This document shows, one piece after another, positions 8,172-22,681 of a stretch of 64,000 bases of DNA. Location of the stretch: assembly GCF_000092245.1 (NCBI RefSeq), contig NC_014166.1, forward strand, positions 186,001-250,000, given 5' to 3'. The notes beneath the pieces are model-generated. The model searched no databases. It saw only the letters and a list, made by a program, of their open reading frames with translations, and was not told the origin of the DNA. The stretch's first letter is position 1. Each line of letters starts with the position of its first letter. Both the position numbers and the translations under genes were made by a program. This DNA comes from Arcobacter nitrofigilis DSM 7299. Lineage in GTDB: Bacteria > Campylobacterota > Campylobacteria > Campylobacterales > Arcobacteraceae.

Positions 8172-8174
8172 AAC

Positions 8175-9143
8175 TTAGTTACTTTGTATACCTAAAACAT
8201 TGTGGTTTATAAAAGCAGTTTTTTCTTTTATATTATCAGCTGTAATTATATTTACTGGAAGTTCTATTACTTTTTGTACTTTTTTTCCTTTTAGATAATT
8301 ATCCATTTGTTCTAAGGCTAATTCCCCCATAATAAAAGGTTGTTGAACAGCTGATGCTAATATAATATTTTTAGGAATTAACTCTAAAAAATCAGGTTCT
8401 AAATCAAAAGTTATCAATAAAATTTCATTTTGTTTTTTAAAATCGTTTATTGCTTTTATAGCTGATTTATAAGTTTTTGAAGATTGAAGCCAAATTGTGT
8501 GTAAATCTGGATATTGTATTATCATGTTTTTTATTAAGTTATAAGTCTCTTCTTCTGTTCTTGTCTTAACTTGTTTTAAATCAGCACTTTTAAATGGAGA
8601 TTCATCTAATGCTTTTAAAAAACCAGCTGTTCTTTCTTGAGTGATAATTTTTTTCTGAGGAAGAGCTATAATACCAATTTCCCCTTTCTCAAAACCTTTT
8701 TTAGTTAATTCTTTTGTAAGATATTTACCTAGATCATATGCTCCAAGTTTATTATTTGAAGAGATGTAAGAAATATAGTCTTTACTTCTTGTTCCTGTAT
8801 CAGAAATAACAACTGGAATATTTGCTTTTTTTGTTAGTTTTAAAATAGTTCCTGCAGTATATGAGTTTATAGAAGAAAGTACGATTCCATCTACTTTATC
8901 TTTTATAGCTTTTACAGTATTTTCTAATTCTTTTTTTTGATTATCTTGAGCATCTAGTACTTCTAAATCATAACCTAATTTATTGCAGTTAGTTTTAATT
9001 CCTTTTTTCATGATTTGCCAAAAAGGGATCTCTAGGTTTGCAACTAAATATGCAATCTTTTTATTTTGCACATTTACACCATAGGCCTCTATAGATGATA
9101 TAAATGTGAATAAAAAGATAATGAAAAGTTTTTTTATATACAT
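8175..9143 (-). CDS. Periplasmic sugar-type substrate-binding protein (Peripla_BP_4 fold)
   Basis: Exported binding protein of 322 residues with a Sec signal (MYIKKLFIIFLFTFISSIEA). The fold follows RbsB/TorT/LuxP proteins: start of lobe 1 in KKIAYLVANLEIPFWQIMKKGI, the VDGIVLSSIN segment, IPVVISDTG, and GIIALPQK in lobe 2. No ABC permease or ATPase is adjacent. The next gene is a histidine kinase three bases away. It is therefore more likely a signal receptor than a transporter component. A TATAAT box on the minus strand at 9176-9181 fits its promoter. The ligand is unknown. The family and the divergent carbohydrate cluster suggest a sugar-like ligand. Confidence 0.85.
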   Translation of the reverse strand: MYIKKLFIIFLFTFISSIEAYGVNVQNKKIAYLVANLEIPFWQIMKKGIKTNCNKLGYDLEVLDAQDNQKKELENTVKAIKDKVDGIVLSSINSYTAGTILKLTKKANIPVVISDTGTRSKDYISYISSNNKLGAYDLGKYLTKELTKKGFEKGEIGIIALPQKKIITQERTAGFLKALDESPFKSADLKQVKTRTEEETYNLIKNMIIQYPDLHTIWLQSSKTYKSAIKAINDFKKQNEILLITFDLEPDFLELIPKNIILASAVQQPFIMGELALEQMDNYLKGKKVQKVIELPVNIITADNIKEKTAFINHNVLGIQSN

Positions 9144-9324: not shown

Positions 9325-10113
9325 ATGTTACCAAAAGATACTAAAACGGACTATTTGATTTTTACAGATTTAGATGGAACTTTATTGGATCATAAAACTT
9401 ATGATTTTAATGAAGCTAAAGAGATACTTGAATATATAAGTGAACAAAAAATACCATTAATAATCGTCACAAGTAAAACAAAAGATGAGGTTATAGAATT
9501 ACAAAAAAGACTAGGTATTTCTTATCCTTTTATTATAGAAAATGGGGCTGGAATATTTATTCCAAAAGAGAAAAGTTTTGAGCTTATCTCTTTAGGTAAA
9601 AGTTATGAGACTACTATTACTTCCTTTAAAAAATATTCAAAAGAGTTCCCTATTAAGGGATTTCATGAAATGAGTGATGAAGAGGTCTCTTTATATACAG
9701 GACTTTCAAAAGATAAATCAAATAAAGCAAAAAAAAGGACTTTTAGTGAGCCTTTTATTTTAAAAGATGAGATGAATATAGAAAAGTTGAAACAATTAGT
9801 TTTAGAAGATGGCTTTGATGTGGTAAAAGGGGGAAGATTTTATCACTTAATTACTTTTGGACAAGATAAAGCAAAGGCAGTAATTGAGATGAAAAAGTAT
9901 TATGAAAACTTGTATAATAAAAGTTTTAAGACAATTGCTTTAGGTGATGGTGAAAATGATATTACTATGTTAAAATGTGTAGATATTCCAATTTTAATAA
10001 AAAAATATGATGGTTCATTTATAAATTGTAAAATAAATAATCTTATAAAATCAAGATTTATTGGTCCAAAAGGTTGGAATGATAGTTTAAAAGGGGTTTT
10101 AAATGTTAAATAA
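9325..10113 (+). CDS. mpgP: Glucosyl-/mannosyl-3-phosphoglycerate phosphatase (HAD family)
   Basis: HAD phosphatase of 262 residues that should remove the phosphate from glucosyl- (or mannosyl-) 3-phosphoglycerate to give the free glycoside. Motif I is FTDLDGTLLD with Asp15 and Asp17, motif II is in VTSKT, a Lys lies in the GQDKAKAV segment, and motif IV is LGDGENDITML. The ENGAGIFIP segment is typical of the MpgP/YedP branch. It overlaps the glycerate kinase gene by 11 bases and is one gene away from the cognate synthase. The synthase next to it belongs to the glucosyl type, so glucosyl-3-phosphoglycerate is the likelier substrate. The start at 9325 has only a weak or distant ribosome site. 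Confidence 0.87.
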   Translation: MLPKDTKTDYLIFTDLDGTLLDHKTYDFNEAKEILEYISEQKIPLIIVTSKTKDEVIELQKRLGISYPFIIENGAGIFIPKEKSFELISLGKSYETTITSFKKYSKEFPIKGFHEMSDEEVSLYTGLSKDKSNKAKKRTFSEPFILKDEMNIEKLKQLVLEDGFDVVKGGRFYHLITFGQDKAKAVIEMKKYYENLYNKSFKTIALGDGENDITMLKCVDIPILIKKYDGSFINCKINNLIKSRFIGPKGWNDSLKGVLNVK

Positions 10114-11416
10114 AAAAGACTTAGAAAATGTTTTTTTATCAATATTAGATGATATTCATCCAAAAAAACTCATAAAAAAACAGTGCAAGTTTGAAAATGA
10201 TAAATTTTATATAAATGCTGAATCTATTGAGATACCAAAAAATAAAAAGATTCATATCTTAGGCTCTGGAAAAGCAGTACTTAGTATGGCTGAGGCTTTA
10301 TATGAAATTATGGAAGACAAAATTGAAAAAGCTCTTTTAGTAGGAGCTTATGAAAATAATTTAAAAAAACAAGATCTCACATATATAAAAAGTACCCATC
10401 CTCTACCTAGTGAGAAAAGTGTAGAAGGGGCAAAAGCTTTAGTAAAAGAGTTTAAATCTTTGGGTGAAGATGATTTTTTTATATATTTATTATCAGGAGG
10501 AAACTCTGCTTTAGTAGAACTCCCAGCAGATGAAATAAGTCTTGAAGAGTTTCAAAAAACAACAAAACTAATGTTAGAAAACTCTATGCCAATAGAATCA
10601 ATAAATTGTGTGAGAAAACATATTTCTCAAGTAAAAGGTGGAAGATTAGCAAGATTTACAAAAGCAAAAGGAGTAGTTTTAACTCTAAGTGATGTTTTAG
10701 GGGATAATTTAGAAGCTATTGGTTCCGCACCACTTTTTTTTGATAGTAGCACTTTTCAAGATGCTTTTGATGCTTTAAATAAATATAATATATTTGAAAA
10801 AGTACCAGATTCTGTACAAAGTTACTTAAAAAAAGCTCTCAATTCAAAAGATTTAGAGACTCCTAAGAGTGAATCTCAAAAAATAAAACATTGTCTAATA
10901 GGTTCAAATGATATTTTACTCAATGTTGCTAAGAATCTTTTAGAAAAGGAAAACTTAAATCCAATCATAGTTGATGAAAAGATAGATGATGATGTTGAAA
11001 TTGTATGTAAAAATCTTCTACAATTTTGTAAAGAAAAAAAAGAGGGATGTTTTATTTTTGGTGGAGAAGCAACTGTAAATGTTAGTGGTACTGGAAAAGG
11101 TGGACGAAATCAACATCTTGTTTTAAGTTTCTTAGATTCTTATCCAAAGGATGAAGATATAATTTTTTTAAGTGCTGCAAGTGATGGTATAGATGGAAAT
11201 TCAGATGCAAGTGGGGCAATAATAGATAAAGACACACTAAAAAAAGTAGAAGAGTTAAACTTAGATATAAAAGCTTATATGAAAAATTTTGATTCAAATA
11301 CTTTTTTTGATAAATTAAATCAACTTTTAAAACCAGGTCCCACACATAATAATATGTTAGATATTGTGATTATATTTATAAATTCAAATAAAAACAAAGG
11401 AGATAAAAATGTCTGA
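10103..11416 (+). CDS. Glycerate 2-kinase (GckA/MOFRL family)
   Basis: Kinase of 437 residues converting D-glycerate to 2-phosphoglycerate. The N-terminal domain carries the GSGKAVLSMAEAL and STHPLPSEKSVEGA segments and the LLSGGNSALVELP loop. The C-terminal MOFRL domain has GGEATVNVSGTGKGGRNQH and the AASDGIDGNSDASGA segment. These mark the class II glycerate kinase family, sometimes mislabelled hydroxypyruvate reductase. AAGGGG precedes the ATG by about seven bases, inside the phosphatase gene. Within this operon its natural substrate is the glycerate released by glucosylglycerate phosphorolysis, which returns carbon to lower glycolysis. Confidence 0.92.
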   Translation: MLNKKDLENVFLSILDDIHPKKLIKKQCKFENDKFYINAESIEIPKNKKIHILGSGKAVLSMAEALYEIMEDKIEKALLVGAYENNLKKQDLTYIKSTHPLPSEKSVEGAKALVKEFKSLGEDDFFIYLLSGGNSALVELPADEISLEEFQKTTKLMLENSMPIESINCVRKHISQVKGGRLARFTKAKGVVLTLSDVLGDNLEAIGSAPLFFDSSTFQDAFDALNKYNIFEKVPDSVQSYLKKALNSKDLETPKSESQKIKHCLIGSNDILLNVAKNLLEKENLNPIIVDEKIDDDVEIVCKNLLQFCKEKKEGCFIFGGEATVNVSGTGKGGRNQHLVLSFLDSYPKDEDIIFLSAASDGIDGNSDASGAIIDKDTLKKVEELNLDIKAYMKNFDSNTFFDKLNQLLKPGPTHNNMLDIVIIFINSNKNKGDKNV

Positions 11417-12620
11417 TTTTTTTCAAAATGGTGTGATAACAACTCTGCAAAAGTTAGGGGATAGAACACTTGAAGATATGGAAAGAGAGCTTTTAAGGTT
11501 TAGTCAAAGAAGAAGAATGGTTCTTTTACTTCCTGCCCTTTATTCAGAGTTTCAAACTCCCTCTATGCATAAAATCATAGATGAATTAAAAAATGTAAAG
11601 TATCTTTACAAGATTATTTTAGGACTTGACCAAGCTACAAAAGAGCAGTTTGAAGAGGTAAAAGAACTTATGTCTATACTTCCTTGTGAGGTTGATATTT
11701 TATGGAATGATGGACCAAATATTAAAGAACTTTATGATGATCTGACAAGAGAGGGCTTCCCTGGACTTGAAACACCAGGAAAAGGAAGAAATGTTTGGAC
11801 CATGATGGGTTATGGTTTAGCTGATAAAGATGCTTATGCTTTTGCTCTTCATGATTGTGATATTGTAAATTATAATAGAGAAATTCCTGCACGTCTTTTT
11901 TTCCCAATAGTTCACCCAGCACTTGATTTTGAATTTAATAAAGGATTTTATTCAAGGGTTACAAATAAACTTCATGGAAGAGCTACAAGGTTGCTTTATA
12001 CTCCTTTATTAAATTCCCTTAAAAAAGTTTATGGAGGGAATAGATATTTAGATTATATGGAGAGTTTTAGATACTCATTATCAGGAGAATTTTCATTTAT
12101 AAGATCTCTTGGTCGCGGTATTGGTATTTCTCCTACTTGGGGATTAGAAGTTTCAACTTTAAGTGAAGTATATAAAAATACTTCAAATAGAAGAATTTGC
12201 CAAACAGAGATAATGGAAAGTTATGAACACAAACACCAAGAATTAAGCAGCCAAAGTGAAGGTGGTGGTATTTATAAAATGGCAAATGATATTGCAAAAA
12301 CTATTTTTAGGGTTATGGCTCAAGAGGGAGTCGTTTTTTCTTCTAGCTCTTTTAAAACCTTACTTGCAACATATTTTCAAGAATCAAGATTTGAAATATC
12401 AAAATATAATGCACTAAGTAAATTAAATGCACTAGATTATAATAGGGAAAAAGAGATTGAAGCAGTAAATACTTTTCAAGATGCTATAAAAAAAGCAGCA
12501 GAAGAGTTTTATGAAGACCCAATGGGTATTCCATCATTATCATCTTGGATTACAGTTCGTTCTGTTATGCCAGAATTTTCTGCAAAATTTATTAAATATG
12601 TAAAGGAGGATAATGAATGA
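11409..12620 (+). CDS. gpgS: Glucosyl-3-phosphoglycerate synthase (GT81-like glycosyltransferase)
   Basis: Cytoplasmic glycosyltransferase of 403 residues expected to join NDP-glucose and 3-phosphoglycerate. The GT-A metal motif is D149-C-D151 in ALHDCDIV. The upstream loop PGKGRNVWTMMGYGLA and the downstream KLHGRATRLLYTPLL and GEFSFIRSL segments fit bacterial GpgS proteins of the Persephonella type. The N-terminal LLLPALYSEFQTP strand is the start of the nucleotide-binding fold. It overlaps the kinase gene by 8 bases and the phosphorylase gene by 4. The adjacent phosphatase and phosphorylase support the assignment. A mannosyl donor cannot be excluded from sequence alone. Confidence 0.82.
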   Translation: MSDFFQNGVITTLQKLGDRTLEDMERELLRFSQRRRMVLLLPALYSEFQTPSMHKIIDELKNVKYLYKIILGLDQATKEQFEEVKELMSILPCEVDILWNDGPNIKELYDDLTREGFPGLETPGKGRNVWTMMGYGLADKDAYAFALHDCDIVNYNREIPARLFFPIVHPALDFEFNKGFYSRVTNKLHGRATRLLYTPLLNSLKKVYGGNRYLDYMESFRYSLSGEFSFIRSLGRGIGISPTWGLEVSTLSEVYKNTSNRRICQTEIMESYEHKHQELSSQSEGGGIYKMANDIAKTIFRVMAQEGVVFSSSSFKTLLATYFQESRFEISKYNALSKLNALDYNREKEIEAVNTFQDAIKKAAEEFYEDPMGIPSLSSWITVRSVMPEFSAKFIKYVKEDNE

Positions 12621-14365
12621 AAGGACCAAAACATATATCAGATCCCAAACATACTATAAATAAAAGACTTCATCGTTTATATCCAGAAGAGATAGCACAA
12701 AGGGCTGTAAATGATATCATTGATTTAATTTTTAAATATAAACAAAGAATTAAACCAAGTGATTATCGTCTAAGCCAAAAAGATATTATTTTGATAACTT
12801 ATGGTGACCAAGTATCAAAACTCCATGAGCCATCTTTAGAGACTTTGAATAATTTTATGAATGACCATCTAAAAGGTGTAATAAATTCTATTCATATTTT
12901 ACCCTTTTATCCATATTCAAGTGATGATGGCTTTTCAGTTGTTAATTATAATGCCGTTGATCCTCATATGGGTTCATGGAGAGAAATTGAGTCAATAAGT
13001 AAAGATTATAGACTTATGGTAGATGGAGTTATAAATCATATCTCTCAATTTTCTGATTGGTTTAAAGCCTATTTAGCAGGTGATCCATATTTTCAAGACT
13101 TTTTTATCAATGTTGATCCTTCAATTGATTTAAGTAAGGTTGTTCGTCCTAGAGCAACGCCGCTATTAAGTGAATTTATTGATGATGAGGGAAAGATAAA
13201 AAATATCTGGACAACCTTTAGTAAAGACCAAGTTGATTTAAACTACAAAAGTCATAGGGTCTTACGAAATGTTTTGGATGCACTTTTTTATTATATAGAA
13301 AAAGGGGCAACACTAATTAGACTTGATGCCATAGCCTTTATTTGGAAAGAGATAGGGACCTCTTGTGTTCATCTTCCCCAAACCCATGAACTAATACAAC
13401 TCATGCGTGAGGTTTTACATGAAGTAGCACCTGAAGTTATTATTATCACAGAAACAAATGTTCCTCACAATGAAAATATTTCATACTTTGGGAGTGGAGA
13501 AGATGAGGCTCAGATGGTATATAACTTTGCTTTGCCTCCTTTATTATTACACTCAATTCTAAACTCAAATACTAAAAAACTAACTGCATGGGCGAAAACT
13601 TTAACTCTTCCTAGTGATAAGGTTTGTTTTTTTAACTTTACTGCAAGCCATGATGGGATAGGTATGCGTCCTATAAAAGGTATTTTAGAAGATGAAGAGA
13701 TTGAAAATCTAGTAAAAACTGTAGAAGACCATGGGGGATTAGTATCTTATAGAGCAGAAGAAGATGGAAGTCAGACTCCATATGAATTAAACTGCTCTTA
13801 TATAGATGCTCTTACTCACCCAAAAGAAGACCAATACCTAAGAGTAAAAAGAATGTTAGTAACTCAAGCAGCTGTTTTAGCAATGCCAGGTGTTCCAGGA
13901 ATTTATTTTCACTCTTTGGTGGGTTCTAAAAATTATCATGATGGGGTTAAACATACAGGTGTAAATCGTACAATAAATAGAGAAAAATATAATATTGATT
14001 GGTTGGAAAATGAACTTTCAAGTCAAGGAACTCTTGCAAAAACAATGTTTGATTCATATAAAAGACTTATATCTATACGAATAAGTGAAGAAGCATTTAA
14101 TCCATTTGGAGAGTTTGAAATTCTAGATTTAGATGATAGACTTTTTGTTATAGATCAATCTTGTTGTGGTAATGAAAATAGAATTGTAGCAATACATAAT
14201 TTCTCAAATGAAGAGGTTATGTGTAAGTTACCTGTTTCTATTTCCTTACCACTTTGTGATATACTTTCTTCAAACTGTATGTCAAAAAATGAAGAAAAAA
14301 CAGAAAAAATGAATGAAATAAAATTAGAGCCATATCAAATTATGTGGCTAAAAGGCAAAATTTAA
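12617..14365 (+). CDS. GH13_18 sugar phosphorylase, probable glucosylglycerate phosphorylase
   Basis: Alpha-amylase-superfamily enzyme of 582 residues of the sucrose phosphorylase branch. The catalytic Asp is D237 in RLDAIAF, the acid/base Glu is E279 in ITETN, and the transition-state Asp is D346 in ASHDG. The opening GDQVSKLHEPSLETLNNFM and HILPFYPYSSDDGFSV are subfamily marks. Members of this branch cleave sucrose, glucosylglycerol, sucrose-6-phosphate or glucosylglycerate with phosphate. Company with a glycerate kinase and a phosphoglycerate glucosyltransferase points to glucosylglycerate, giving glucose-1-phosphate and glycerate. The specificity is inferred from context. Confidence 0.83.
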   Translation: MKGPKHISDPKHTINKRLHRLYPEEIAQRAVNDIIDLIFKYKQRIKPSDYRLSQKDIILITYGDQVSKLHEPSLETLNNFMNDHLKGVINSIHILPFYPYSSDDGFSVVNYNAVDPHMGSWREIESISKDYRLMVDGVINHISQFSDWFKAYLAGDPYFQDFFINVDPSIDLSKVVRPRATPLLSEFIDDEGKIKNIWTTFSKDQVDLNYKSHRVLRNVLDALFYYIEKGATLIRLDAIAFIWKEIGTSCVHLPQTHELIQLMREVLHEVAPEVIIITETNVPHNENISYFGSGEDEAQMVYNFALPPLLLHSILNSNTKKLTAWAKTLTLPSDKVCFFNFTASHDGIGMRPIKGILEDEEIENLVKTVEDHGGLVSYRAEEDGSQTPYELNCSYIDALTHPKEDQYLRVKRMLVTQAAVLAMPGVPGIYFHSLVGSKNYHDGVKHTGVNRTINREKYNIDWLENELSSQGTLAKTMFDSYKRLISIRISEEAFNPFGEFEILDLDDRLFVIDQSCCGNENRIVAIHNFSNEEVMCKLPVSISLPLCDILSSNCMSKNEEKTEKMNEIKLEPYQIMWLKGKI

Positions 14366-14386
14366 AAAAGAAAAAAGGATAAATAA

Positions 14387-15238
14387 ATGAACGCTAAAGA
14401 TAAAACAATAACAAGTTGTCTATTTCCAGCAGCTGGATATGGAACAAGATTTCTTCCAGCAACAAAAGCTATGCCAAAAGAGATGTTACCAGTTCTTACA
14501 AAACCCTTGATTCAGTATGGAGTTGAAGAGGCGATGGAAGCTGGTTGCGACATTATGTCTGTTATTACAGGGCGAGGGAAAAGAGCTATAACAGATCATT
14601 TTGATATCTCTTATGAGTTAGAACACCAAATACAAGGTTCATCAAAAGAGAAAATGTTAGCTGATATTAGAAATATTATTGATAAATGTACATTTACTTA
14701 TACTAGACAAAATGAGATGAAAGGTTTAGGAGATGCTATTTATAAGGGTAAAGTTTTAGTAGGAGACATTAATCCTTTTGCAGTAATCCTTGCAGATGAC
14801 CTTTGTGTAAATCCAAAGGGTGATGGTATTTTAGCTCAAATGGTAAAACTTTATAATAAATATAAATGTTGTATCGTAGCTTGTATGGAAGTACCCAAAG
14901 AAGATGTACATAAATATGGGGTAATAGAAGGTAATCAAATAGAAGATGGTGTTTTTATGGTATCAAATATGGTTGAAAAGCCTGATAATGATAAAGCTCC
15001 ATCAAATTTAGCTGTTATAGGAAGATATATTTTAACACCAGATATTTTTGAAGTAATTCAAAATACAAAACCTGGTAAAAATGGAGAGTTACAAATTACT
15101 GATGCTTTATGTACACAAGCAAAAAAAGGTATGGTAATGGCTTATAAATTCCAAGGAAAAAGATTTGATTGTGGTAGTGTTGATGGTTTTGTTGAAGCTA
15201 CAAACTATTTTTATAATTTAGAGAATAAAAAGAAATAA
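14387..15238 (+). CDS. galU: UTP-glucose-1-phosphate uridylyltransferase
   Basis: Makes UDP-glucose from glucose-1-phosphate and UTP, 283 residues. The nucleotide-binding loop is FPAAGYGTRFLPATKAMPKE (about 13-32), followed by PLIQYGVEEA. ILADDLCV contains the metal Asp, and VEKPDNDKAPSNLAVIGRYIL and KRFDCGSVDGFVEA are standard GalU segments. It begins 21 bases after the phosphorylase stop with AAAGGA before the ATG. In this cluster it would supply the glucosyl donor for GpgS and reuse glucose-1-phosphate. It probably also serves envelope glycan synthesis. Confidence 0.95.
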   Translation: MNAKDKTITSCLFPAAGYGTRFLPATKAMPKEMLPVLTKPLIQYGVEEAMEAGCDIMSVITGRGKRAITDHFDISYELEHQIQGSSKEKMLADIRNIIDKCTFTYTRQNEMKGLGDAIYKGKVLVGDINPFAVILADDLCVNPKGDGILAQMVKLYNKYKCCIVACMEVPKEDVHKYGVIEGNQIEDGVFMVSNMVEKPDNDKAPSNLAVIGRYILTPDIFEVIQNTKPGKNGELQITDALCTQAKKGMVMAYKFQGKRFDCGSVDGFVEATNYFYNLENKKK

Positions 15239-15239
15239 A

Positions 15240-16700
15240 ATGAATACAAAAAATAATCTATGTGATTTTATACTTTTTGGTGGACATGGTGATTTGGCAT
15301 TTAGAAAACTTATGCCTGCACTTTATCATCTATGTAAAGATAAATATATCTCAAGTGAAAGTAGAATAATAACAGTCTCAAGAAAAGAGATAAGCATAGA
15401 TGAACACATAAAGCTTATAGAAGATAAATTAAATGAATTTTTAAGTGAAGAAAAGATTGATGAAGAGTTTTTCAAAATCTTTAAAAAACAACTTCTTATG
15501 GTAACTATAGACTTTGCAGATGAAAAATCATATGAAAAATTGCAAACTATTTTAAATGAACATAGTGATAGAGAGAGAATAAATTATCTATCAACTTCAC
15601 CTGATTTTTTTGGAACTATTTGTAAGTCATTAAATCACTGGAATTTAATAAGTCAACAAACAAGAGTTGTACTAGAAAAACCTTTAGGTAGGGATTTAAA
15701 ATCATCACAAGAGATAAATAAAGAGGTTTTAAAATATTTTGAAGAGGACCAAATATATAGAATTGACCACTATTTAGGTAAAGACACCGTTCAAAATATC
15801 ATGGCTTTGAGATTTTCAAATAGACTTTTTGTTCCACTTTGGAATTCTAACCACATAGACCATGTACAAATAACAGTTGCAGAAAGTGTTGGTGTTGAGA
15901 ATCGTTGGGGTTATTATAATGAGTATGGAGCCTTGAGGGATATGATTCAAAATCACCTTATGCAACTACTTTGTTTAATCGCTATGGAGCCTCCTTGTTC
16001 ACTTGAAGCAAATAGTGTAAGGGATGAAAAAGTAAAAGTATTACGTTCTTTTAGAAATATAAATGATGAAGATATCAAAACGAAAACGGTAAGAGCTCAA
16101 TATAAAGCTGGTTCTTCAGATGGAAAAACAGTTCCAGGATATCTTGATGGAAAAGAGGAAGGAAGTAATACAGAAACTTTTGCAGCCATTAGAGTTGATA
16201 TAGATAATTGGAGATGGAATGGAGTACCTTTTTATATAAGAAGTGGTAAACGTCTTCAAAGAAGAAATTCTGAGATTGTAATTCAGTTTAAAACTATTCC
16301 TCACTCTATATTTGGTGAAGATGAGACTTCAATAAATGCGAATAGATTAGTAATAACTCTACAACCAAAAGAGAGTATTGAGTTAAAGCTTATGAATAAA
16401 ATCCCAGGGTTAAGTGATAGTATGAAACTTCAACAAGTGGATTTAGAACTAAACTCACCCCATAATAGTGATAGAAAACCTGATGCTTATGAAAGACTTA
16501 TTTTAGATGTGGTTCGCTCTAATCCTACGCTTTTTATGAGACTTGATGAGGTAGAAACTGCTTGGAAATGGGCAGATAAGATTATAGAGGGTTGGGAAAA
16601 GAATCTCTCACCTATGAAAACATATACAGCCGGAAGTGATGGACCAAGTGCCGCTATTCAATTAATCGCAAAAGATGGAAGAAGTTGGAACGATGAATGA
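15240..16700 (+). CDS. zwf: Glucose-6-phosphate 1-dehydrogenase
   Basis: NAD(P)-dependent first enzyme of the oxidative branch, 486 residues, standard length. The dinucleotide fold opens with FGGHGDLAFRKLMPALYHL. The substrate motif RIDHYLGKDTVQN contains His177. FYIRSGKRLQRRNSEIVIQFK and the C-terminal YTAGSDGPSAA are typical. It starts one base after the galU stop. No 6-phosphogluconate dehydrogenase gene is present in the window, and the following genes are edd and eda, so the product is directed into the Entner-Doudoroff route. Confidence 0.96.
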   Translation: MNTKNNLCDFILFGGHGDLAFRKLMPALYHLCKDKYISSESRIITVSRKEISIDEHIKLIEDKLNEFLSEEKIDEEFFKIFKKQLLMVTIDFADEKSYEKLQTILNEHSDRERINYLSTSPDFFGTICKSLNHWNLISQQTRVVLEKPLGRDLKSSQEINKEVLKYFEEDQIYRIDHYLGKDTVQNIMALRFSNRLFVPLWNSNHIDHVQITVAESVGVENRWGYYNEYGALRDMIQNHLMQLLCLIAMEPPCSLEANSVRDEKVKVLRSFRNINDEDIKTKTVRAQYKAGSSDGKTVPGYLDGKEEGSNTETFAAIRVDIDNWRWNGVPFYIRSGKRLQRRNSEIVIQFKTIPHSIFGEDETSINANRLVITLQPKESIELKLMNKIPGLSDSMKLQQVDLELNSPHNSDRKPDAYERLILDVVRSNPTLFMRLDEVETAWKWADKIIEGWEKNLSPMKTYTAGSDGPSAAIQLIAKDGRSWNDE

Positions 16701-17385
16701 ATTTAAAGAATTTTTTTCAAGTGAAGGATTAGCACAAAACCTAGCTTCTGATATTGCTTTGATATTAAAAAATAGTATAGAAACTGAGGGGAAAGCGACG
16801 CTTTTAGTATCAGGTGGAAATACTCCAAAGCTATTTTTTCAAAAACTTTCAAACATAAATATTCAATGGGAAAAGGTAACCATAGGATTAGTAGATGAAA
16901 GATGGGTTGAAAATGATTCTAAAGATAGTAATGAGGTTTTAGTAAAAGAAAACTTACTTAAGAATCTTGCTAGAAAAGCCCATTTTGTTGGACTTTATGT
17001 AAAAGGATTAAGTGCAGAGTCTGCCCAAAATATCTCTTCAAAAATATATGAAAATGAGTTTGAAAAAGTAGATGTTTTGGTTTTAGGTATGGGTACTGAT
17101 GGACACACTGCCTCATTATTTCCTAATAATGAAAGGCTAAAAGAGGCTTATGATTTAACAAATGAAAATTTTTGTATTTCAATTGAACCAACAACAGTTC
17201 CTTATACAAGAATGAGTTTAATATTAAAGAAAATTTTAGAAGCTAAAAATATAATATTACATATAGAAGGAAAAGAAAAACTTGAAGTATATAATAGTGC
17301 TATAAATGCAAATGATATTTATAAATATCCAATTAGTTCAGTTTTAAATCAAACTGATAAAAAAATAAAGGTTTATTACTCATGA
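16693..17385 (+). CDS. pgl: 6-phosphogluconolactonase
   Basis: Hydrolyses 6-phosphogluconolactone, about 230 residues from the ATG at 16693 that overlaps the zwf stop region (ATGAATGA). A start at 16675 would add six residues. The later start was preferred because it gives the usual MNEFKEF-type N-terminus. Family motifs are LLVSGGNTPKLFFQKLS, GLVDERWVENDSKDSNE and VLGMGTDGHTASLFP (the catalytic TDGH loop). Position between zwf and edd with overlapping ends fits its pathway step. Confidence 0.94.
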   Translation: MNEFKEFFSSEGLAQNLASDIALILKNSIETEGKATLLVSGGNTPKLFFQKLSNINIQWEKVTIGLVDERWVENDSKDSNEVLVKENLLKNLARKAHFVGLYVKGLSAESAQNISSKIYENEFEKVDVLVLGMGTDGHTASLFPNNERLKEAYDLTNENFCISIEPTTVPYTRMSLILKKILEAKNIILHIEGKEKLEVYNSAINANDIYKYPISSVLNQTDKKIKVYYS

Positions 17386-19202
17386 ATAAAATAATAGAAG
17401 AAGTAACAAACAAAATAATAAAAAGATCACAAAAAAGTAGAAAGATTTATCTATCTAGAATAAATGAAGCTAAAAAAAATAGTGTAAATAGAGCAACCTT
17501 AGATTGTGCCAATTTAGCCCATGCTATTGCTCCAATGACCAATGAAGAAAAAGCTTATTTAAGTGATATGAAATCTTTTAATATGGGAATTGTAACTGCT
17601 TATAATGATATGTTGTCAGCCCATGAACCTTATGCTGCATATCCTGATATCTTAAAAAAAGAGCTTTTAAAACATAGTTCGACTGCTCAAGTTGCAGGTG
17701 GAGTTCCAGCAATGTGTGATGGAGTAACTCAAGGGCAAGCAGGTATGGAATTATCACTTTTTTCTAGGGATAATATAGCTATGGGAACTGCAATTGCCCT
17801 GAGCCATAATACTTATGATGGAGCATTTTATTTGGGAATTTGTGACAAGATTGTTCCCGGATTAATGATTGGAGCTTTGAGTTTTGGACATTTACCAGCT
17901 ATTTTTGTACCATCAGGTCCTATGCCTTCTGGTATTTCAAATAAAGAAAAAGCAAAAGTGAGACAAGAGTTTGCCCAAAACAAAATAGATGAAAAAGCAC
18001 TTTTTGAAGTGGAAAAGGCATCTTATCATAGCTGTGGAACCTGTACTTTTTTTGGAACAGCAAATTCAAATCAAATGCTTTTGGAGATGATGGGCTTACA
18101 ACTTCCTAATGGCTCTTTTGTAAATGCAAATACACCTTTAAGATATGCTTTGACAAAAAAATCAGCCCAAACTCTTATAAACCTATGTGAGAAAAAAATA
18201 TCAATATCAGATATTGTAAATGAAAAAACTTTTGTAAATGCAATTATTGGACTTATGGCAACAGGAGGTTCAACAAATCACACTATTCATTTAATTGCTA
18301 TGGCAAAAGCAGCTGGGATAGTTCTTACTTGGGAAGATTTTGATGATATTTCAAAAGTTACGCCATTACTTTGTAAAATGTATCCAAATGGAAGTGCAGA
18401 TGTAAATCACTTTAGAGATGCGGGTGGAATGAGTGTAGTTATAGCCCAACTTCTTGACTTAGACTTAGTTCATAATGATGTTCAAACAGTTGTTGGATAT
18501 GGTTTAGATAATTTTATCAAAGAACCAGTTTTACAAGATGATGAACTAATTTTTAATGATGGAGAAAAAAGTTCAAAAAATATAGAAGTAATCTCAAGTG
18601 CTAAAACTCCTTTTTCAAAAGAGGGTGGATTAAAACTTTTAGTGGGAAATCTTGGTAAAAGTGTTATAAAAACTTCAGCTTTGAAAGAAGAATATCTTTA
18701 TATAAAAGCACCAGCTGTTGTATTTAATTCACAAGAAGAGTTACAAAAAGAGTTTGTAAAAGGAAAACTAGAAAAAGATTTTATTGCAGTTATAAGATAT
18801 CAAGGACCAAAGGCAAATGGAATGCCAGAACTTCATAAACTAATGCCTCCCCTTGGAGCCTTACAAGATAAAGGTTTTAAAGTAGCAATTATAACAGATG
18901 GTAGAATGTCAGGGGCTTCTGGAAAAGTTGCCTCTGCAATACATCTTTATCCTGAGGCTATTGAAGGTGGACTTATAGCAAAAATTGAAAATGGTGATAT
19001 GATAGAGATGGATGTAAAAAATGGCACAATAAAACTTCTAATTGATAAAGAAGTTTTAGAAAAAAGAGAAGTTAAACAGATAAATTTAGAAAAAAATAGA
19101 CATGGTTTCGGACGAGAACTATTTTCAAGTATTAGAGAAAATGTAAGTTCAAGTGAAACCGGAGCAACTATTTTTAAACTTGTAGGAGAAGAAAACTTAT
19201 GA
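17382..19202 (+). CDS. edd: 6-phosphogluconate dehydratase
   Basis: [4Fe-4S] dehydratase of the IlvD/Edd family, 606 residues, making 2-keto-3-deoxy-6-phosphogluconate. It has TAYNDMLSAHEPYAAYP, GGVPAMCDGVTQGQAGMELS (a cluster Cys), CDKIVPGLMIGAL (a second) and SCGTCTFFGTANSNQMLLE (a third). The C-terminal TDGRMSGASGKV segment is also a family signature. Edd rather than IlvD is chosen because of the length and the adjacent eda. Its ATGA overlaps the lactonase stop, and its own stop overlaps the eda start. Confidence 0.96.
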   Translation: MNKIIEEVTNKIIKRSQKSRKIYLSRINEAKKNSVNRATLDCANLAHAIAPMTNEEKAYLSDMKSFNMGIVTAYNDMLSAHEPYAAYPDILKKELLKHSSTAQVAGGVPAMCDGVTQGQAGMELSLFSRDNIAMGTAIALSHNTYDGAFYLGICDKIVPGLMIGALSFGHLPAIFVPSGPMPSGISNKEKAKVRQEFAQNKIDEKALFEVEKASYHSCGTCTFFGTANSNQMLLEMMGLQLPNGSFVNANTPLRYALTKKSAQTLINLCEKKISISDIVNEKTFVNAIIGLMATGGSTNHTIHLIAMAKAAGIVLTWEDFDDISKVTPLLCKMYPNGSADVNHFRDAGGMSVVIAQLLDLDLVHNDVQTVVGYGLDNFIKEPVLQDDELIFNDGEKSSKNIEVISSAKTPFSKEGGLKLLVGNLGKSVIKTSALKEEYLYIKAPAVVFNSQEELQKEFVKGKLEKDFIAVIRYQGPKANGMPELHKLMPPLGALQDKGFKVAIITDGRMSGASGKVASAIHLYPEAIEGGLIAKIENGDMIEMDVKNGTIKLLIDKEVLEKREVKQINLEKNRHGFGRELFSSIRENVSSSETGATIFKLVGEENL

Positions 19203-19822
19203 ATGCAAATGATGTAATGAAAATATCACCAATAGTACCAGTTATTGCCCTTGATGATATAAAAGATGCTTTGCCTTTAGCAAAAGCTTTAAGTGAGGGT
19301 GGAATAAATATTATGGAGATAACTTTAAGAACAAAAGCTGGACTTAAAGCTATTAATCTTATCTCAAAAGAGATGCCATCTATGAATGTGGGAGCTGGAA
19401 CAGTTTGCAATAATGTTGATTTGATGGAAGCAAAAGCAGTGGGTGCAAAATTTGTATTTTCTCCTGGAATTTCTCAAGAGTTAATAGATAGTGCAAAAAA
19501 ATATAAGATGACAATTATTCCAGGAATTGCAACTGCTTCAGAAGTTATGCTTGCTCAAAATAATGGTATTTATAATTGTAAATTATTCCCTGCAACAATA
19601 AGTGGAGGAGTTGATATTTTAAAAGCTTTTCAAGGACCTTTTCCAAAAATGAAGTTTTGTCCCACAGGTGGAGTAAATCTAGAAAATCTAAATGACTTTT
19701 TATCTTTAAAAAATGTTTTATGTGTTGGTGGAACATGGATTATTCCAAAAGATATTATAAAAAGTGGTGATTTTAATAAGATTACAGAGTTATGTATTGA
19801 GGCACTAGCAAAAATAAAATAA
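19199..19822 (+). CDS. eda: KDPG aldolase
   Basis: Class I aldolase splitting KDPG to pyruvate and glyceraldehyde-3-phosphate, 207 residues. The Schiff-base residue is Lys128 in YNCKLFPA, and the catalytic Glu is Glu40 in MEITLRT. GAGTV, FSPGI and FCPTGGVNLENL (phosphate site) complete the TIM-barrel signature. ATGA overlap with edd indicates coupled translation. This completes the Entner-Doudoroff branch within one operon. Confidence 0.96.
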   Translation: MNANDVMKISPIVPVIALDDIKDALPLAKALSEGGINIMEITLRTKAGLKAINLISKEMPSMNVGAGTVCNNVDLMEAKAVGAKFVFSPGISQELIDSAKKYKMTIIPGIATASEVMLAQNNGIYNCKLFPATISGGVDILKAFQGPFPKMKFCPTGGVNLENLNDFLSLKNVLCVGGTWIIPKDIIKSGDFNKITELCIEALAKIK

Positions 19823-19834
19823 AAGGAGATTATT

Positions 19835-21469
19835 TTGGCAAATGAATTAGCAGGAAAAAAAGCACCTAAAGAGATATTAGAGAATATCCCAAAACTACTT
19901 TCATCTTATTATGAAAATAAGCCAAATATAAATGAAGTAAGTCAAAAAGTTAGTTTTGGTACATCTGGACATAGGGGAAGTTCCCTAAAAACAAGTTTCA
20001 ATGAAGACCATATTTTAGCTATTTCTCAAGCCTTATGTGAATATAGAAAAGATGCAAAAATAACTGGAACTTTATATATAGGAATAGATACTCATGCCCT
20101 CTCAACTCCTGCTCAAACAACAGCATTACAAGTATTTATAGCAAATAAAATAAAATGTAAAATTGCCCAAAATAAAAACTTCACTCCCACTCCTGTAATT
20201 TCCTTTACTATTTTAGAAGCTAATAAAAATAGTAAAATTTTAAATGATGGAGTCGTAATAACTCCTTCTCACAATCCACCAAGTGATGGTGGCTTTAAAT
20301 ATAATCCACCAAATGGTGGACCAGCAGATAGTGATATTACAACTATCATAGAAAATAGAGCAAATGAGATTTTGGCAAATGGTTTAAAGGATGTAAAAAA
20401 AGTCTCAATTGAAGAGTTAGATGGTTCTTTGTTTGTAGAAGAGTTTGATTTTATAACTCCTTATGTAAAAGCTCTTGATACTATTATTGATATGGCTTGT
20501 ATTAAAAAAGCAAATCTTAAAATTGGTGTTGACCCAATGGGCGGTTCTGGAATAGAAGTTTACAAAAAGATAAAAGAGATTTATGGTTTAAATCTTGAAA
20601 TTGTAAATGATAAAGTTGATCCAACTTTTTCTTTTATGACTTGTGATCATGATGGTAAGATTAGAATGGATTGTTCATCAAAAGATGCAATGGCTTCATT
20701 AATAGGCTTAAAAGACAAGTATGAATTAGCTTTTGCAAATGATCCTGACTTTGATAGACATGGAATCGTGACTCCAAGTGTTGGGCTTATGAATCCAAAT
20801 CATTATCTCTCTGTTGCTATTTGGTATTTATTTTCAAATAGACCTTGGAGTGATGACTTAGGCATTGGGAAGACATTAGTCTCAAGTTCTATGATAGATA
20901 GGGTTGCAAAGATGCTTAATAAGAAGCTTTATGAAGTACCTGTTGGCTTTAAATGGTTTGTTGATGGTCTTTATGAAGGAACTTTAGGTTTTGGAGGAGA
21001 AGAGAGTGCTGGAGCTTCATTTTTAAGATTTGATGGAAGTGTTTGGTCAACTGATAAAGATGGAATAATTTTAAATTTATTAGCAGCTGAGATTACTTCA
21101 AAACTAAAAAAAGACCCTGGAACTATTTATAAAGAGTTAGAAGAGAAAAATGGAACTTCATATTATAAAAGAATCGATGCCCCAGCAACGATAGAACAAA
21201 AAGCTAAACTAAAAAGTCTAAGTGTTGAAGATATAGTATCAAAAGAGCTTGCAGGGGAACTTATCGAAAATATTTTTACTAAAGCAGAGGGTAATAAAGC
21301 ATCCATTGGAGGGTTGAAAGTGGTTACCAAAAATGGTTGGTTTGCAGCTCGTCCTTCAGGTACAGAAGATATATATAAAATCTATGCGGAAAGTTTTATA
21401 AGTAGTGAGCATTTGGAGCTTATTTTAACCCAAGCTCAAGAGATAGTAACACAAAGTATAAAAGGATAA
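19835..21469 (+). CDS. pgm: Phosphoglucomutase (alpha-D-glucose, Pgm type)
   Basis: Interconverts glucose-1-phosphate and glucose-6-phosphate, 544 residues, the length of the E. coli Pgm type. The phosphoserine is Ser145 in TPSHNPPSDGG, the metal loop is DPDFDRHG, the sugar-binding loop is GFGGEESAGAS, and the C-terminal phosphate loop is RPSGTEDIYKIYAES. The start is a TTG at 19835 with a strong AGGAG six bases upstream and no closer ATG, so TTG initiation is likely. It provides the link between the phosphorylase product and zwf. Confidence 0.95.
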   Translation: MANELAGKKAPKEILENIPKLLSSYYENKPNINEVSQKVSFGTSGHRGSSLKTSFNEDHILAISQALCEYRKDAKITGTLYIGIDTHALSTPAQTTALQVFIANKIKCKIAQNKNFTPTPVISFTILEANKNSKILNDGVVITPSHNPPSDGGFKYNPPNGGPADSDITTIIENRANEILANGLKDVKKVSIEELDGSLFVEEFDFITPYVKALDTIIDMACIKKANLKIGVDPMGGSGIEVYKKIKEIYGLNLEIVNDKVDPTFSFMTCDHDGKIRMDCSSKDAMASLIGLKDKYELAFANDPDFDRHGIVTPSVGLMNPNHYLSVAIWYLFSNRPWSDDLGIGKTLVSSSMIDRVAKMLNKKLYEVPVGFKWFVDGLYEGTLGFGGEESAGASFLRFDGSVWSTDKDGIILNLLAAEITSKLKKDPGTIYKELEEKNGTSYYKRIDAPATIEQKAKLKSLSVEDIVSKELAGELIENIFTKAEGNKASIGGLKVVTKNGWFAARPSGTEDIYKIYAESFISSEHLELILTQAQEIVTQSIKG

Positions 21470-21472
21470 AAG

Positions 21473-22681
21473 ATGAATTATAGTGCAAATTTTAGTCCAA
21501 GGGTTTCTGATAGTGAGATTTTCGAAAGTATAAAAAAAGAGAAGCAAGATATAGGTTATTATAACTTGCCTTTTCAAGATACAACTCTAATAAAGGAGTA
21601 TGCCCAAACTGTCAAGCAAAAAGATATAGCAATAATTGGAATAGGTGGAAGTACTTTAGGAACTTTTGCAATTTATAGTTTTTTAACTAGAACCCATAAC
21701 TTTGATAAAAAGCTTTATTTTTTTGAATCAACTGATCCAATTGATATAAATACAAGATTGGAAAGATTAGATTTAGACAATACCCTATTTATCGTTATTA
21801 GTAAATCAGGTACAACTATTGAGACAATAAGTGTCTTTAAATACCTTTACTCAAAAGTTAAAATTGACAAAAATAATTGTTTAATAATAACAGAGACTGA
21901 CAGTAAACTAAATGATTTTGCCCAAAGTAATGATATAAAAACATTTGAAATACCCAAAAATGTTGGTGGGAGATTTTCTGTATTTTCTACTGTAGGACTT
22001 GTACCTTTAGCAATTGTTGGAATTGATATTGATAGATTATTGGATGGTGCAAAAGAGGCTTATAGTGAATACTTTGAACAAGAGGCTTTATATAAAAGAA
22101 TAATGACAAAAGCTAGATTTATGGCAGAGTATAAGCATAAGTTTAATAATAATGTAGTTTTTTCTTATGCTTCAGAACTTGAAGGATTTAATAAATGGTA
22201 TGTTCAATTATGGGGAGAAAGCTTAGGGAAAATTGACAAAGACAATACTCACCAAGGTTTGACACCAATTGGTTTATTAGGTCCAGTTGATCAACATAGT
22301 TTTTTACAGTTAATCATCCAAGGGAAAAGGGATAAAACGGTTACTTTTATTAAAATAAAAGATTTCGCAGATAACTCAAAAATTCCTGATGTAAAATTAA
22401 AAGGTTTAGAAGAACTTGATTATATTAATAATTTAAAATTCTCTGAGCTTATAAATCATCAAGCAGATGCTACTATAGAAGCAGTACATGATTTACAAGA
22501 TATTCCATGTGATACTATTACTATGGATAAAGTTGATGGATTTAGTTTAGCAAAATTAATGTATGTATATGAATTACTAACTTCAATAGTTGGAAAATTT
22601 TTATTTATAAATGCCTATGATCAACCAGGCGTTGAAAGTGGTAAAATAATTTTAAAAGAGAAACTAAAAAAGAAAAAATAG
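21473..22681 (+). CDS. pgi: Glucose-6-phosphate isomerase, short type
   Basis: Interconverts glucose-6-phosphate and fructose-6-phosphate, 402 residues, shorter than the 549-residue E. coli form but usual for Campylobacterota. Motifs are IAIIGIGGSTLGTFAIYSFL, VISKSGTTIETIS, GGRFSVFSTVGLVPLAI, WGESLGKIDKDNTHQGLTP and GPVDQHSFLQL. It starts three bases after pgm and is the last gene of the long block. An independent promoter box follows before the next gene. Confidence 0.95.
   Translation: MNYSANFSPRVSDSEIFESIKKEKQDIGYYNLPFQDTTLIKEYAQTVKQKDIAIIGIGGSTLGTFAIYSFLTRTHNFDKKLYFFESTDPIDINTRLERLDLDNTLFIVISKSGTTIETISVFKYLYSKVKIDKNNCLIITETDSKLNDFAQSNDIKTFEIPKNVGGRFSVFSTVGLVPLAIVGIDIDRLLDGAKEAYSEYFEQEALYKRIMTKARFMAEYKHKFNNNVVFSYASELEGFNKWYVQLWGESLGKIDKDNTHQGLTPIGLLGPVDQHSFLQLIIQGKRDKTVTFIKIKDFADNSKIPDVKLKGLEELDYINNLKFSELINHQADATIEAVHDLQDIPCDTITMDKVDGFSLAKLMYVYELLTSIVGKFLFINAYDQPGVESGKIILKEKLKKKK

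What the first reader, a model, noticed from the sequence alone, without database searches (positions are those of the whole stretch)
9325..22681. Complete glucosylglycerate cycle fused to an Entner-Doudoroff operon
Ten consecutive plus-strand genes with overlaps or tiny gaps encode a closed set. A GpgS-like synthase and HAD phosphatase make glucosylglycerate. A GH13_18 phosphorylase breaks it to glucose-1-phosphate and glycerate. A glycerate 2-kinase recovers glycerate. galU recycles glucose-1-phosphate, and pgm, zwf, pgl, edd and eda take it to pyruvate. pgi adds the fructose-6-phosphate link. Catalytic residues are visible in every enzyme. Making and degrading an osmolyte from the same operon, with the product drained into the Entner-Doudoroff route, would be a compatible-solute battery or glucose store. 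It is unusual in a phylum mostly described as not using sugars.
Basis: partly seen in the sequence, partly recalled or inferred. Interest (0 to 1): 0.78.

Follow-up and report, generated by a model that had tools for sequence, protein, structure and literature searches.

The report
Glucosylglycerate cycle joined to Entner-Doudoroff operon
A salt-marsh bacterium that cannot use sugars carries one tight gene block that should make a small protective sugar compound, break it down again without spending ATP on the sugar, and burn it, which may explain why this bacterium has a sugar-burning pathway at all.

Summary
In detail: 9325-22681 is an uninterrupted plus-strand run of eleven genes (not ten), gaps -26 to +21 bases. 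The GH13 enzyme carries both published signatures of glucosylglycerate phosphorylase (TETN, PYELN) and is 44% identical to E. coli YcjM. The closed genome gave no Glk, ROK, PTS enzyme I, PFK, or gluconokinase over cut-off, so the only sugar route into this Entner-Doudoroff (ED) operon that I can point to is internal glucosylglycerate; gluconeogenic glucose-6-phosphate remains open. Synthase and phosphorylase occur in the same 28 of 104 family genomes; ED lies directly behind the core in 16 of 21 with both, and in front of it, independently, in one Sulfurimonadaceae MAG. The exact eleven-gene order is seen only in the genus. An operon that makes and recycles glucosylglycerate is known in Prochlorococcus; the ED junction and kinase-free setting look new. 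Against: 8 of 16 joined-block genomes have a glucokinase, 7 of 28 core genomes have no edd found, and no metabolite or expression data exist here.

The parts
9325..10113 (+). gpgP-like HAD-IIB phosphatase (glucosyl-3-phosphoglycerate phosphatase, inferred)
   Evidence: TIGR01486 MPGP family 227.7 bits, over cut-off 164.75; HAD motifs invariant in 14 aligned rows: D15, D17, T49, S50, K182, G207, D208, N211, D212 (their roles are recalled)
10103..11416 (+). MOFRL-type glycerate 2-kinase (recovers glycerate as 2-phosphoglycerate, inferred)
   Evidence: PF13660 and PF05161 over cut-off; NF041176 3.1e-69, under cut-off
11409..12620 (+). gpgS-like glucosyl-3-phosphoglycerate synthase
   Evidence: NF040724 GpgS_Meth 5.8e-93 and PRK13915 5.3e-11, both under cut-off; D149-C150-D151 invariant in 32 rows; modest-confidence model whose nearest solved folds are MpgS and mycobacterial GpgS
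12617..14365 (+). GH13_18 glucosylglycerate phosphorylase (ggaP)
   Evidence: TETN 278-281 and loop-A P388-Y389-E390 invariant in 25 rows including E. coli YcjM; 44% identity to YcjM over 526 columns; signatures from PMC7178133 (passages)
14387..15238 (+). galU, UTP-glucose-1-phosphate uridylyltransferase
   Evidence: TIGR01099 387 bits, over cut-off
15240..16700 (+). zwf, glucose-6-phosphate dehydrogenase
   Evidence: TIGR00871 590 bits, over cut-off
16675..17385 (+). pgl, 6-phosphogluconolactonase
   Evidence: TIGR01198 175 bits, over cut-off
17382..19202 (+). edd, 6-phosphogluconate dehydratase
   Evidence: TIGR01196 931 bits, over cut-off 708
19199..19822 (+). eda, KDPG aldolase
   Evidence: TIGR01182 256 bits, over cut-off
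19835..21469 (+). pgm, phosphoglucomutase
   Evidence: TIGR01132 839 bits, over cut-off; start codon TTG
21473..22681 (+). pgi, glucose-6-phosphate isomerase (402 aa)
   Evidence: PF00342 1.2e-33, over cut-off

Best explanation
The block is one operon that runs an intracellular glucosylglycerate (GGA) cycle with an ED outlet. Making: pgm and galU turn glucose-6-phosphate into UDP-glucose, GpgS joins it to 3-phosphoglycerate and the HAD phosphatase releases GGA, a charged, nitrogen-free compatible solute. Breaking: the GH13_18 phosphorylase splits GGA with phosphate into glucose-1-phosphate and glycerate, so the sugar leaves already phosphorylated and needs no glucokinase. Glycerate kinase returns glycerate to lower glycolysis. 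pgm, zwf, pgl, edd and eda take the hexose to pyruvate and glyceraldehyde-3-phosphate, giving reduced nicotinamide. In this non-saccharolytic species I think GGA is an osmolyte that doubles as a carbon and reducing-power reserve, and that it is the main hexose that the ED enzymes burn. Shown: gene order, families, signature residues, conservation, absence of the main sugar-entry families in the closed genome. Inferred: donor sugar, substrates, co-transcription, flux direction, physiological role.
For: GGaP signatures TETN and PYEL and 44% identity to E. coli YcjM, annotated as glucosylglycerate phosphorylase. GpgS and GGaP in the same 28 of 104 family genomes. Core joined to ED in 16 of the 21 family genomes with both GGaP and edd (in two of the 16 a contig end interrupts the block). 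GGaP and edd co-occur: 19 of 28 GGaP genomes against 3 of 76 others have an edd over cut-off, Fisher p 2.6e-11, not corrected for kinship. An independent junction with ED in front of the core in a Sulfurimonadaceae MAG contig (L119), whose GGaP falls with four ED-less cores of another family at 100/100 support. Own genome, 99.96% complete, one contig: no Glk PF02685, no ROK, no PTS EI, no PFK, FGGY kinases only GlpK and LsrK, GntK model only 21.5 bits against a cut-off of 113.75, no second match to PF00128. A. nitrofigilis neither oxidises nor ferments carbohydrates, tolerates 7% NaCl, fixes nitrogen and has no granules (PMC3035288, passages). No transporter gene in the block.
Against: 8 of the 16 joined-block genomes have a Glk, so there the same ED genes could serve imported glucose. 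In 7 of 28 GGaP genomes no edd was found (two of the 7 are 84% and 86% complete), so ED is not needed for GGA turnover. ED could also run on gluconeogenic glucose-6-phosphate to make NADPH. Other hexokinase types, sugar-phosphate uptake and 6-phosphogluconate dehydrogenase were not searched. The synthase and the glycerate kinase lie below the curated equivalog cut-offs, the synthase model is poor (mean pLDDT 70) and its best fold match is a mannosyl enzyme. Gene order around the core and ED varies: pgm is in 5 of the 16 joined blocks only. No expression or metabolite data.
Confidence: 0.66

Rival explanations
1. GGA is only an osmolyte whose pool size is trimmed by the phosphorylase, and ED shares the operon because all these enzymes touch glucose phosphates. 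ED's real work is NADPH from gluconeogenic glucose-6-phosphate.
For: 7 of 28 GGaP genomes have the core with galU and no edd found. pgm or pgi sit beside the core without ED in several loci. Of nine free-standing ED loci, four (L068, L070, L072, L073) show no sugar uptake or kinase gene that I recognise beside them (read from the reading frames, not scanned by profile), so ED without a dedicated sugar supply exists in this family.
Against: ED is joined to the core in 16 of the 21 family genomes with both, and again independently on the other side of the core in L119. Free-standing ED copies form their own group of nine (96/95), and four of the nine (L067, L069, L071, L074) have a PfkB-type kinase beside them, two of these with an ABC transporter and a mannitol dehydrogenase (Pfam for L067 and L071; L069 and L074 by like reading frames), i.e. 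their own substrate supply.
Confidence: 0.24
2. The sugar is mannose or another sugar: the synthase and phosphatase make mannosylglycerate, and the GH13 acts on another glucoside.
For: The phosphatase belongs to the mannosyl-3-phosphoglycerate phosphatase family. The best fold match of the synthase is T. thermophilus MpgS.
Against: The synthase matches two GpgS models and nothing else at E 0.001; the bifunctional mannosyl-3-phosphoglycerate synthase/phosphatase model NF011072, which is in that library, did not match it. GH13_18 strictly binds glucosyl in subsite -1 (PMC7178133, passage). GGaP signatures are met. galU is in the block.
Confidence: 0.05
3. The block imports and eats GGA or sugars from the marsh plant or neighbours, as suggested for GGA uptake in Prochlorococcus.
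For: A putative transporter gene lies in the Prochlorococcus operon (PMC11631117, passages). YcjM in E. coli lies beside an ABC transporter. A sugar-type periplasmic binding protein lies divergently at 8175-9143.
Against: No permease in the block or among the flanking genes listed, and a synthase and phosphatase are included. The binding protein sits beside a histidine kinase and keeps this place only in the same genus among the loci compared.
Confidence: 0.05

Closest known systems
Glucosylglycerate phosphorylase (GGaP, EC 2.4.1.352; Meiothermus silvanus, Spirochaeta thermophila, E. coli YcjM) in GH13_18
   Same: TETN acid/base loop, conserved Glu in loop A, frequent neighbours glycerate kinase, gpgS or gpgP (PMC7178133, passages)
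   Different: Here part of an eleven-gene run with galU, ED, pgm and pgi; none of the passages I read mentions an ED neighbour
Glucosylglycerate metabolism operon of Prochlorococcus NATL2A
   Same: Synthesis of glucosyl-3-phosphoglycerate and recycling of GGA to glucose-1-phosphate and 3-phosphoglycerate, compatible-solute genes co-located in one operon; compatible solutes discussed as an energy store (PMC11631117, passages)
   Different: A phototroph with a putative transporter gene in the operon and no ED genes mentioned in the passages; its authors lean to uptake rather than storage
Mycobacterial GGA accumulation and glucosylglycerate hydrolase
   Same: GGA accumulates under nitrogen starvation and is used on recovery (PMC6608630, start of abstract in the listing; PMC11009771, sections 3 and 4)
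   Different: Hydrolysis gives free glucose that needs a kinase; here phosphorolysis
ED pathway in Arcobacter (A. anaerophilus IR-1, A. nitrofigilis)
   Same: ED listed as present in both; IR-1 lacks hexokinase and does not use sugars (PMC4584990, passages)
   Different: No internal substrate was proposed in the passages read; the GGA genes are not mentioned there

Membership tests
Glucosylglycerate phosphorylase (GH13_18 GGaP) | (T/S)ETN at the tip of beta-strand 5 | tested here: met
   TETN 278-281, invariant in 25 aligned rows; 42 of 42 copies over 500 aa from the unnamed-genome regions
Glucosylglycerate phosphorylase (GH13_18 GGaP) | Glu instead of Gln in loop A | tested here: met
   E390 in PYELN, invariant in 25 rows; PYE(L/I)N in 41 of 42
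Glucosylglycerate phosphorylase (GH13_18 GGaP) | Phosphorolysis of glucosylglycerate, not sucrose | not testable with these tools
   Needs an assay
Sucrose phosphorylase (GH13_18) | N(L/V)D(I/L/V)YQ motif in loop A | tested here: not met
   0 of 42; window has PYELN
Glucosyl-3-phosphoglycerate synthase (GpgS) | Reaches NCBIfam equivalog cut-off | tested here: not met
   NF040724 312 of 700 bits; homologous, but outside the curated core
Glucosyl-3-phosphoglycerate synthase (GpgS) | Metal-binding DxD and GpgS fold | tested here: inconclusive
   D149-C150-D151 invariant (its role is recalled); fold matches MpgS and GpgS at TM-scores of about 0.26-0.46 on a model of pLDDT 70, only 2 matches (both MpgS) at E 0.001 or better
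Entner-Doudoroff pathway | zwf, pgl, edd, eda all over curated cut-offs | tested here: met
Saccharolytic ED operon | Sugar uptake and kinase genes available | tested here: not met
   None in the block; no Glk, ROK, PTS EI or gluconokinase over cut-off in the genome; other kinases and sugar transporters not searched

The most novel reading that the evidence does not exclude
In non-saccharolytic Arcobacter the ED pathway has an internal, not external, substrate: it is the combustion arm of a compatible-solute reserve. Phosphorolysis makes a glucokinase unnecessary, and salt or nitrogen status rather than sugar supply would decide when ED runs. The junction arose at least twice in Campylobacterota.
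Probability: 0.4. Interest if true: 0.75.

Novelty: new variant of a known kind. Interest (0 to 1): 0.6.

Why it matters
A complete ED pathway in bacteria that neither use nor, as far as I can see, phosphorylate sugars is an oddity (reported without hexokinase for A. anaerophilus IR-1, PMC4584990). This block offers a concrete substrate for it and makes the question testable with one metabolite measurement and one deletion. It also predicts an osmolyte in part of the Campylobacterota, for which I found no report in the searched library, and a way in which a salt-stress solute can double as a fuel.

Tried and rejected
Sucrose phosphorylase reading: rejected because the sucrose motif is in 0 of 42 copies and the GGaP motifs are in 42 and 41 of 42. 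External sugar as the usual ED feed in this species: not supported; the kinase and PTS searches were negative. Chance neighbours: rejected by conservation. Solved-structure search for the synthase by sequence and by profile gave nothing. The promoter and terminator scan gave fewer hits than the mean of the shuffles and was not used. Literature: 'glucosylglycerate phosphorylase' 14 papers listed, four opened in passages or sections (PMC7178133, PMC11009771, PMC10608839, PMC11631117). 'glucosylglycerate' with 'Arcobacter' 0 papers; with 'Campylobacter' 5 listed, none opened, none about this phylum's glucosylglycerate by title or start of abstract; with 'Entner-Doudoroff' 8 listed, two opened, no joined operon in the passages seen. 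'Entner-Doudoroff' with 'Arcobacter' 25 papers, 20 listed, two opened in passages; with 'glucokinase' 3 listed, none opened. Searches found 539 and 137 papers, of which 20 and 10 rows were seen; every row seen had a count of 0 for the glucosylglycerate or glucosyl-3-phosphoglycerate term. The original GGaP paper (PMC5601347) is not held.
Full report
What is there. The stretch 9325-22681 holds eleven plus-strand genes with gaps of -26 to +21 bases: HAD phosphatase, MOFRL glycerate kinase, GpgS-like synthase, GH13_18 enzyme, galU, zwf, pgl, edd, eda, pgm, pgi. galU, zwf, pgl, edd, eda and pgm pass curated NCBIfam cut-offs; the phosphatase passes the MPGP family model; the synthase (312 of 700 bits) and the glycerate kinase (234 of 550 bits) are clear homologues below equivalog cut-offs. 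pgi passes Pfam. Base composition of the block is close to that of the window (30.4% and 30.7% G+C).

The host. The window lies in a one-contig genome of 3,192,235 bases. That is exactly the length published for the Arcobacter nitrofigilis type strain (PMC3035288, abstract), so I take it to be that genome; the identification rests on length alone. The paper says that the species fixes nitrogen, needs 0.5% and tolerates 7% NaCl, forms no granules, and neither oxidises nor ferments carbohydrates (passages). PMC4584990 lists ED as present in A. nitrofigilis, and in A. anaerophilus IR-1, which lacks hexokinase and does not use sugars (passages). A paper on two shale Arcobacter isolates says that they have no potential to make osmolytes other than ectoine (PMC6249378, passages); those are other strains and I did not test them.

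The phosphorylase. A 2020 review states that GGaP is told from sucrose phosphorylase by (T/S)ETN and by Glu in loop A (PMC7178133, passages). The window protein has TETN and PYELN. The key positions are invariant in 25 aligned rows that include E. coli YcjM, to which it is 44% identical over 526 columns. In 42 copies over 500 aa from the fetched unnamed-genome regions, 42 have (T/S)ETN, 41 have PYE(L/I)N, and none has the sucrose phosphorylase motif; in 79 reading frames over 450 aa from the 80 named loci, 79 have (T/S)ETN and 63 have PYE(L/I/V)N. It is the only match to PF00128 in the genome, which speaks against a glycogen branching enzyme of GH13; glycogen synthase and phosphorylase were not searched.

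The synthase. The profile of 32 relatives finds no solved structure by sequence. A model (mean pLDDT 70) has mannosyl-3-phosphoglycerate synthase and mycobacterial GpgS as nearest solved folds, at low TM-scores of about 0.26-0.46, only the two best (both MpgS chains) at E 0.001 or better. I read this as the right superfamily and no more. The choice of glucose over mannose rests on the GpgS profile match, galU and GGaP.

Conservation. In 104 genomes of the family, GGaP occurs in 28 and the synthase in the same 28. A sample of 397 genomes of the phylum gave 24 with a match; 22 are full-length GGaP (7 of this family, 15 of four other families) and the other 2 (G326, G107) are weak matches to other GH13 proteins. 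All 15 outside the family have phosphatase, glycerate kinase, synthase and phosphorylase together, 11 of 15 with galU. None has zwf, pgl, edd or eda beside them in the 13.6-19 kb fetched; the one edd-like hit, in L098, is 28% identical and I take it for a dihydroxy-acid dehydratase. A true edd (over cut-off) occurs in 22 of 104 family genomes, with fragments in two more, G098 and G075. Of the 28 GGaP genomes 21 have edd (fragments counted) and 7 do not (two of the 7, G071 and G096, are 84% and 86% complete); of the 76 others 3 have it (kinship not corrected). Of the 21, 16 have ED directly behind the core, counting the window, G075 which is cut by a contig end inside edd, and G059 where core and galU-ED lie at the ends of two contigs; 5 have ED elsewhere. 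What is conserved is core plus ED. The surroundings vary: pgm is in 5 of the 16; the isomerase is of two types (44-100% or 26-28% identical to the window's) or not seen; G058 lacks glycerate kinase in the block, G083 lacks galU there, and G033 has its phosphatase in two pieces. The exact eleven-gene order is seen in the window, G032 and G033, the three genomes of the genus.

A second, independent junction. Among the 80 best named loci, L119 (Sulfurimonadaceae MAG BB26, a 15.5-kb contig) has zwf-pgl-edd-eda in front of gpgP-glyK-gpgS-ggaP-galU, with about 180 bases between eda and gpgP. Its GGaP groups with four ED-less cores of another family (f7) at 100/100 support, outside the 100/99 group of 32 that holds the joined Arcobacteraceae blocks. 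L120 (a MAG labelled Arcobacter sp.) has the same order as the window up to eda. The other 77 named loci show no ED genes beside GGaP among up to fifteen reading frames displayed; many are short contigs, so this is not proof of absence. The edd tree sets the nine free-standing copies apart from the joined ones (96/95). Of these nine loci, L067 carries an ABC transporter (binding protein, permease and ATPase by Pfam), a mannitol dehydrogenase and a PfkB kinase, and L071 a PfkB kinase and a ROK-type regulator; L069 and L074 look alike by reading frames; L066 is cut at zwf; in L068, L070, L072 and L073 I recognise no sugar uptake or kinase gene (not scanned by profile). So free-standing ED is tied to imported sugar in some genomes only. 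On the GGaP tree the label 'joined' needs 10 changes (at least 5 forced by well-supported branches), so it is gained or lost often.

Where the hexose can come from. In the window's genome I found no Glk, no ROK, no PTS enzyme I, no PFK, and no gluconokinase over cut-off: the two FGGY proteins are glycerol kinase and autoinducer-2 kinase, and the only GntK-model match is 21.5 bits against a cut-off of 113.75. So GGA phosphorolysis is the one route to hexose phosphate from a sugar that I can point to; gluconeogenesis is the other source. This is not general: 8 of the 16 joined-block genomes have a Glk, and 8 have neither Glk nor ROK, 6 of these 8 at least 90% complete.

How it should work (inference from established enzymology). 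GGA + phosphate gives glucose-1-phosphate and glycerate without ATP for the hexose. Glycerate costs one ATP and returns it at pyruvate kinase. ED then gives pyruvate, glyceraldehyde-3-phosphate and reduced nicotinamide. Running both halves at once would waste UTP and ATP, so control by salt, phosphate or transcription should exist; I found no evidence on it.

What is known already. GGaP beside gpgS, gpgP or glycerate kinase is known (PMC7178133, passages). A GGA operon with making and recycling is known in Prochlorococcus, where its use as an energy store was considered and an outside source was favoured (PMC11631117, passages). Recovery from nitrogen starvation on GGA is known in mycobacteria (PMC6608630, start of abstract in the search listing). 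Rhodoalgimonas was assigned a GGaP by the same two motifs (PMC10608839, passages). I found no report of a GGA-ED operon or of GGA in Campylobacterota in the searches named under Tried and rejected.

Changes made on checking. The free-standing ED loci are less uniformly tied to sugar genes than I first wrote, and L114 is not an extra case; I lowered the main confidence from 0.68 to 0.66 and raised the first rival from 0.22 to 0.24 for that reason.

Verdict. A real, conserved junction of known enzyme sets in a new combination, with a directly testable role: new variant of a known kind, interest 0.6.

Noticed in passing
window 5916-9143 (minus strand): A PAS histidine kinase and a sugar-type periplasmic binding protein (Peripla_BP_4) lie divergently from the block; among the loci compared, this pair keeps this place only in the same genus (G032, G033). 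It may be a sensor for the block or unrelated.
   Followed up: partly
L113 (own genome, C1 about 1,289,683): An autoinducer-2 kinase (LsrK model NF008187, 879 bits, over cut-off) sits in this non-saccharolytic genome; with the binding protein above it may point to AI-2 processing.
   Followed up: no
L115 and L116: Flavobacteria (Wenyingzhuangia) carry the four-gene GGA core at 74-75% GGaP and 83-85% synthase identity, nested among Arcobacteraceae-type copies: likely horizontal transfer between phyla.
   Followed up: partly
L031 (G033): The phosphatase gene, and also the neighbouring histidine kinase gene, are each split into two reading frames; decay or sequencing error.
   Followed up: no
L047 (G058): Glycerate kinase is missing between gpgP and gpgS, so glycerate must be recovered by another gene or lost; the rest of that genome was not searched for it.
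   Followed up: no
L122, L124, L125, L126: Candidatus Scalindua MAGs have GGaP about 60% identical to the window's, with none of the window block's other genes recognised beside it.
   Followed up: no
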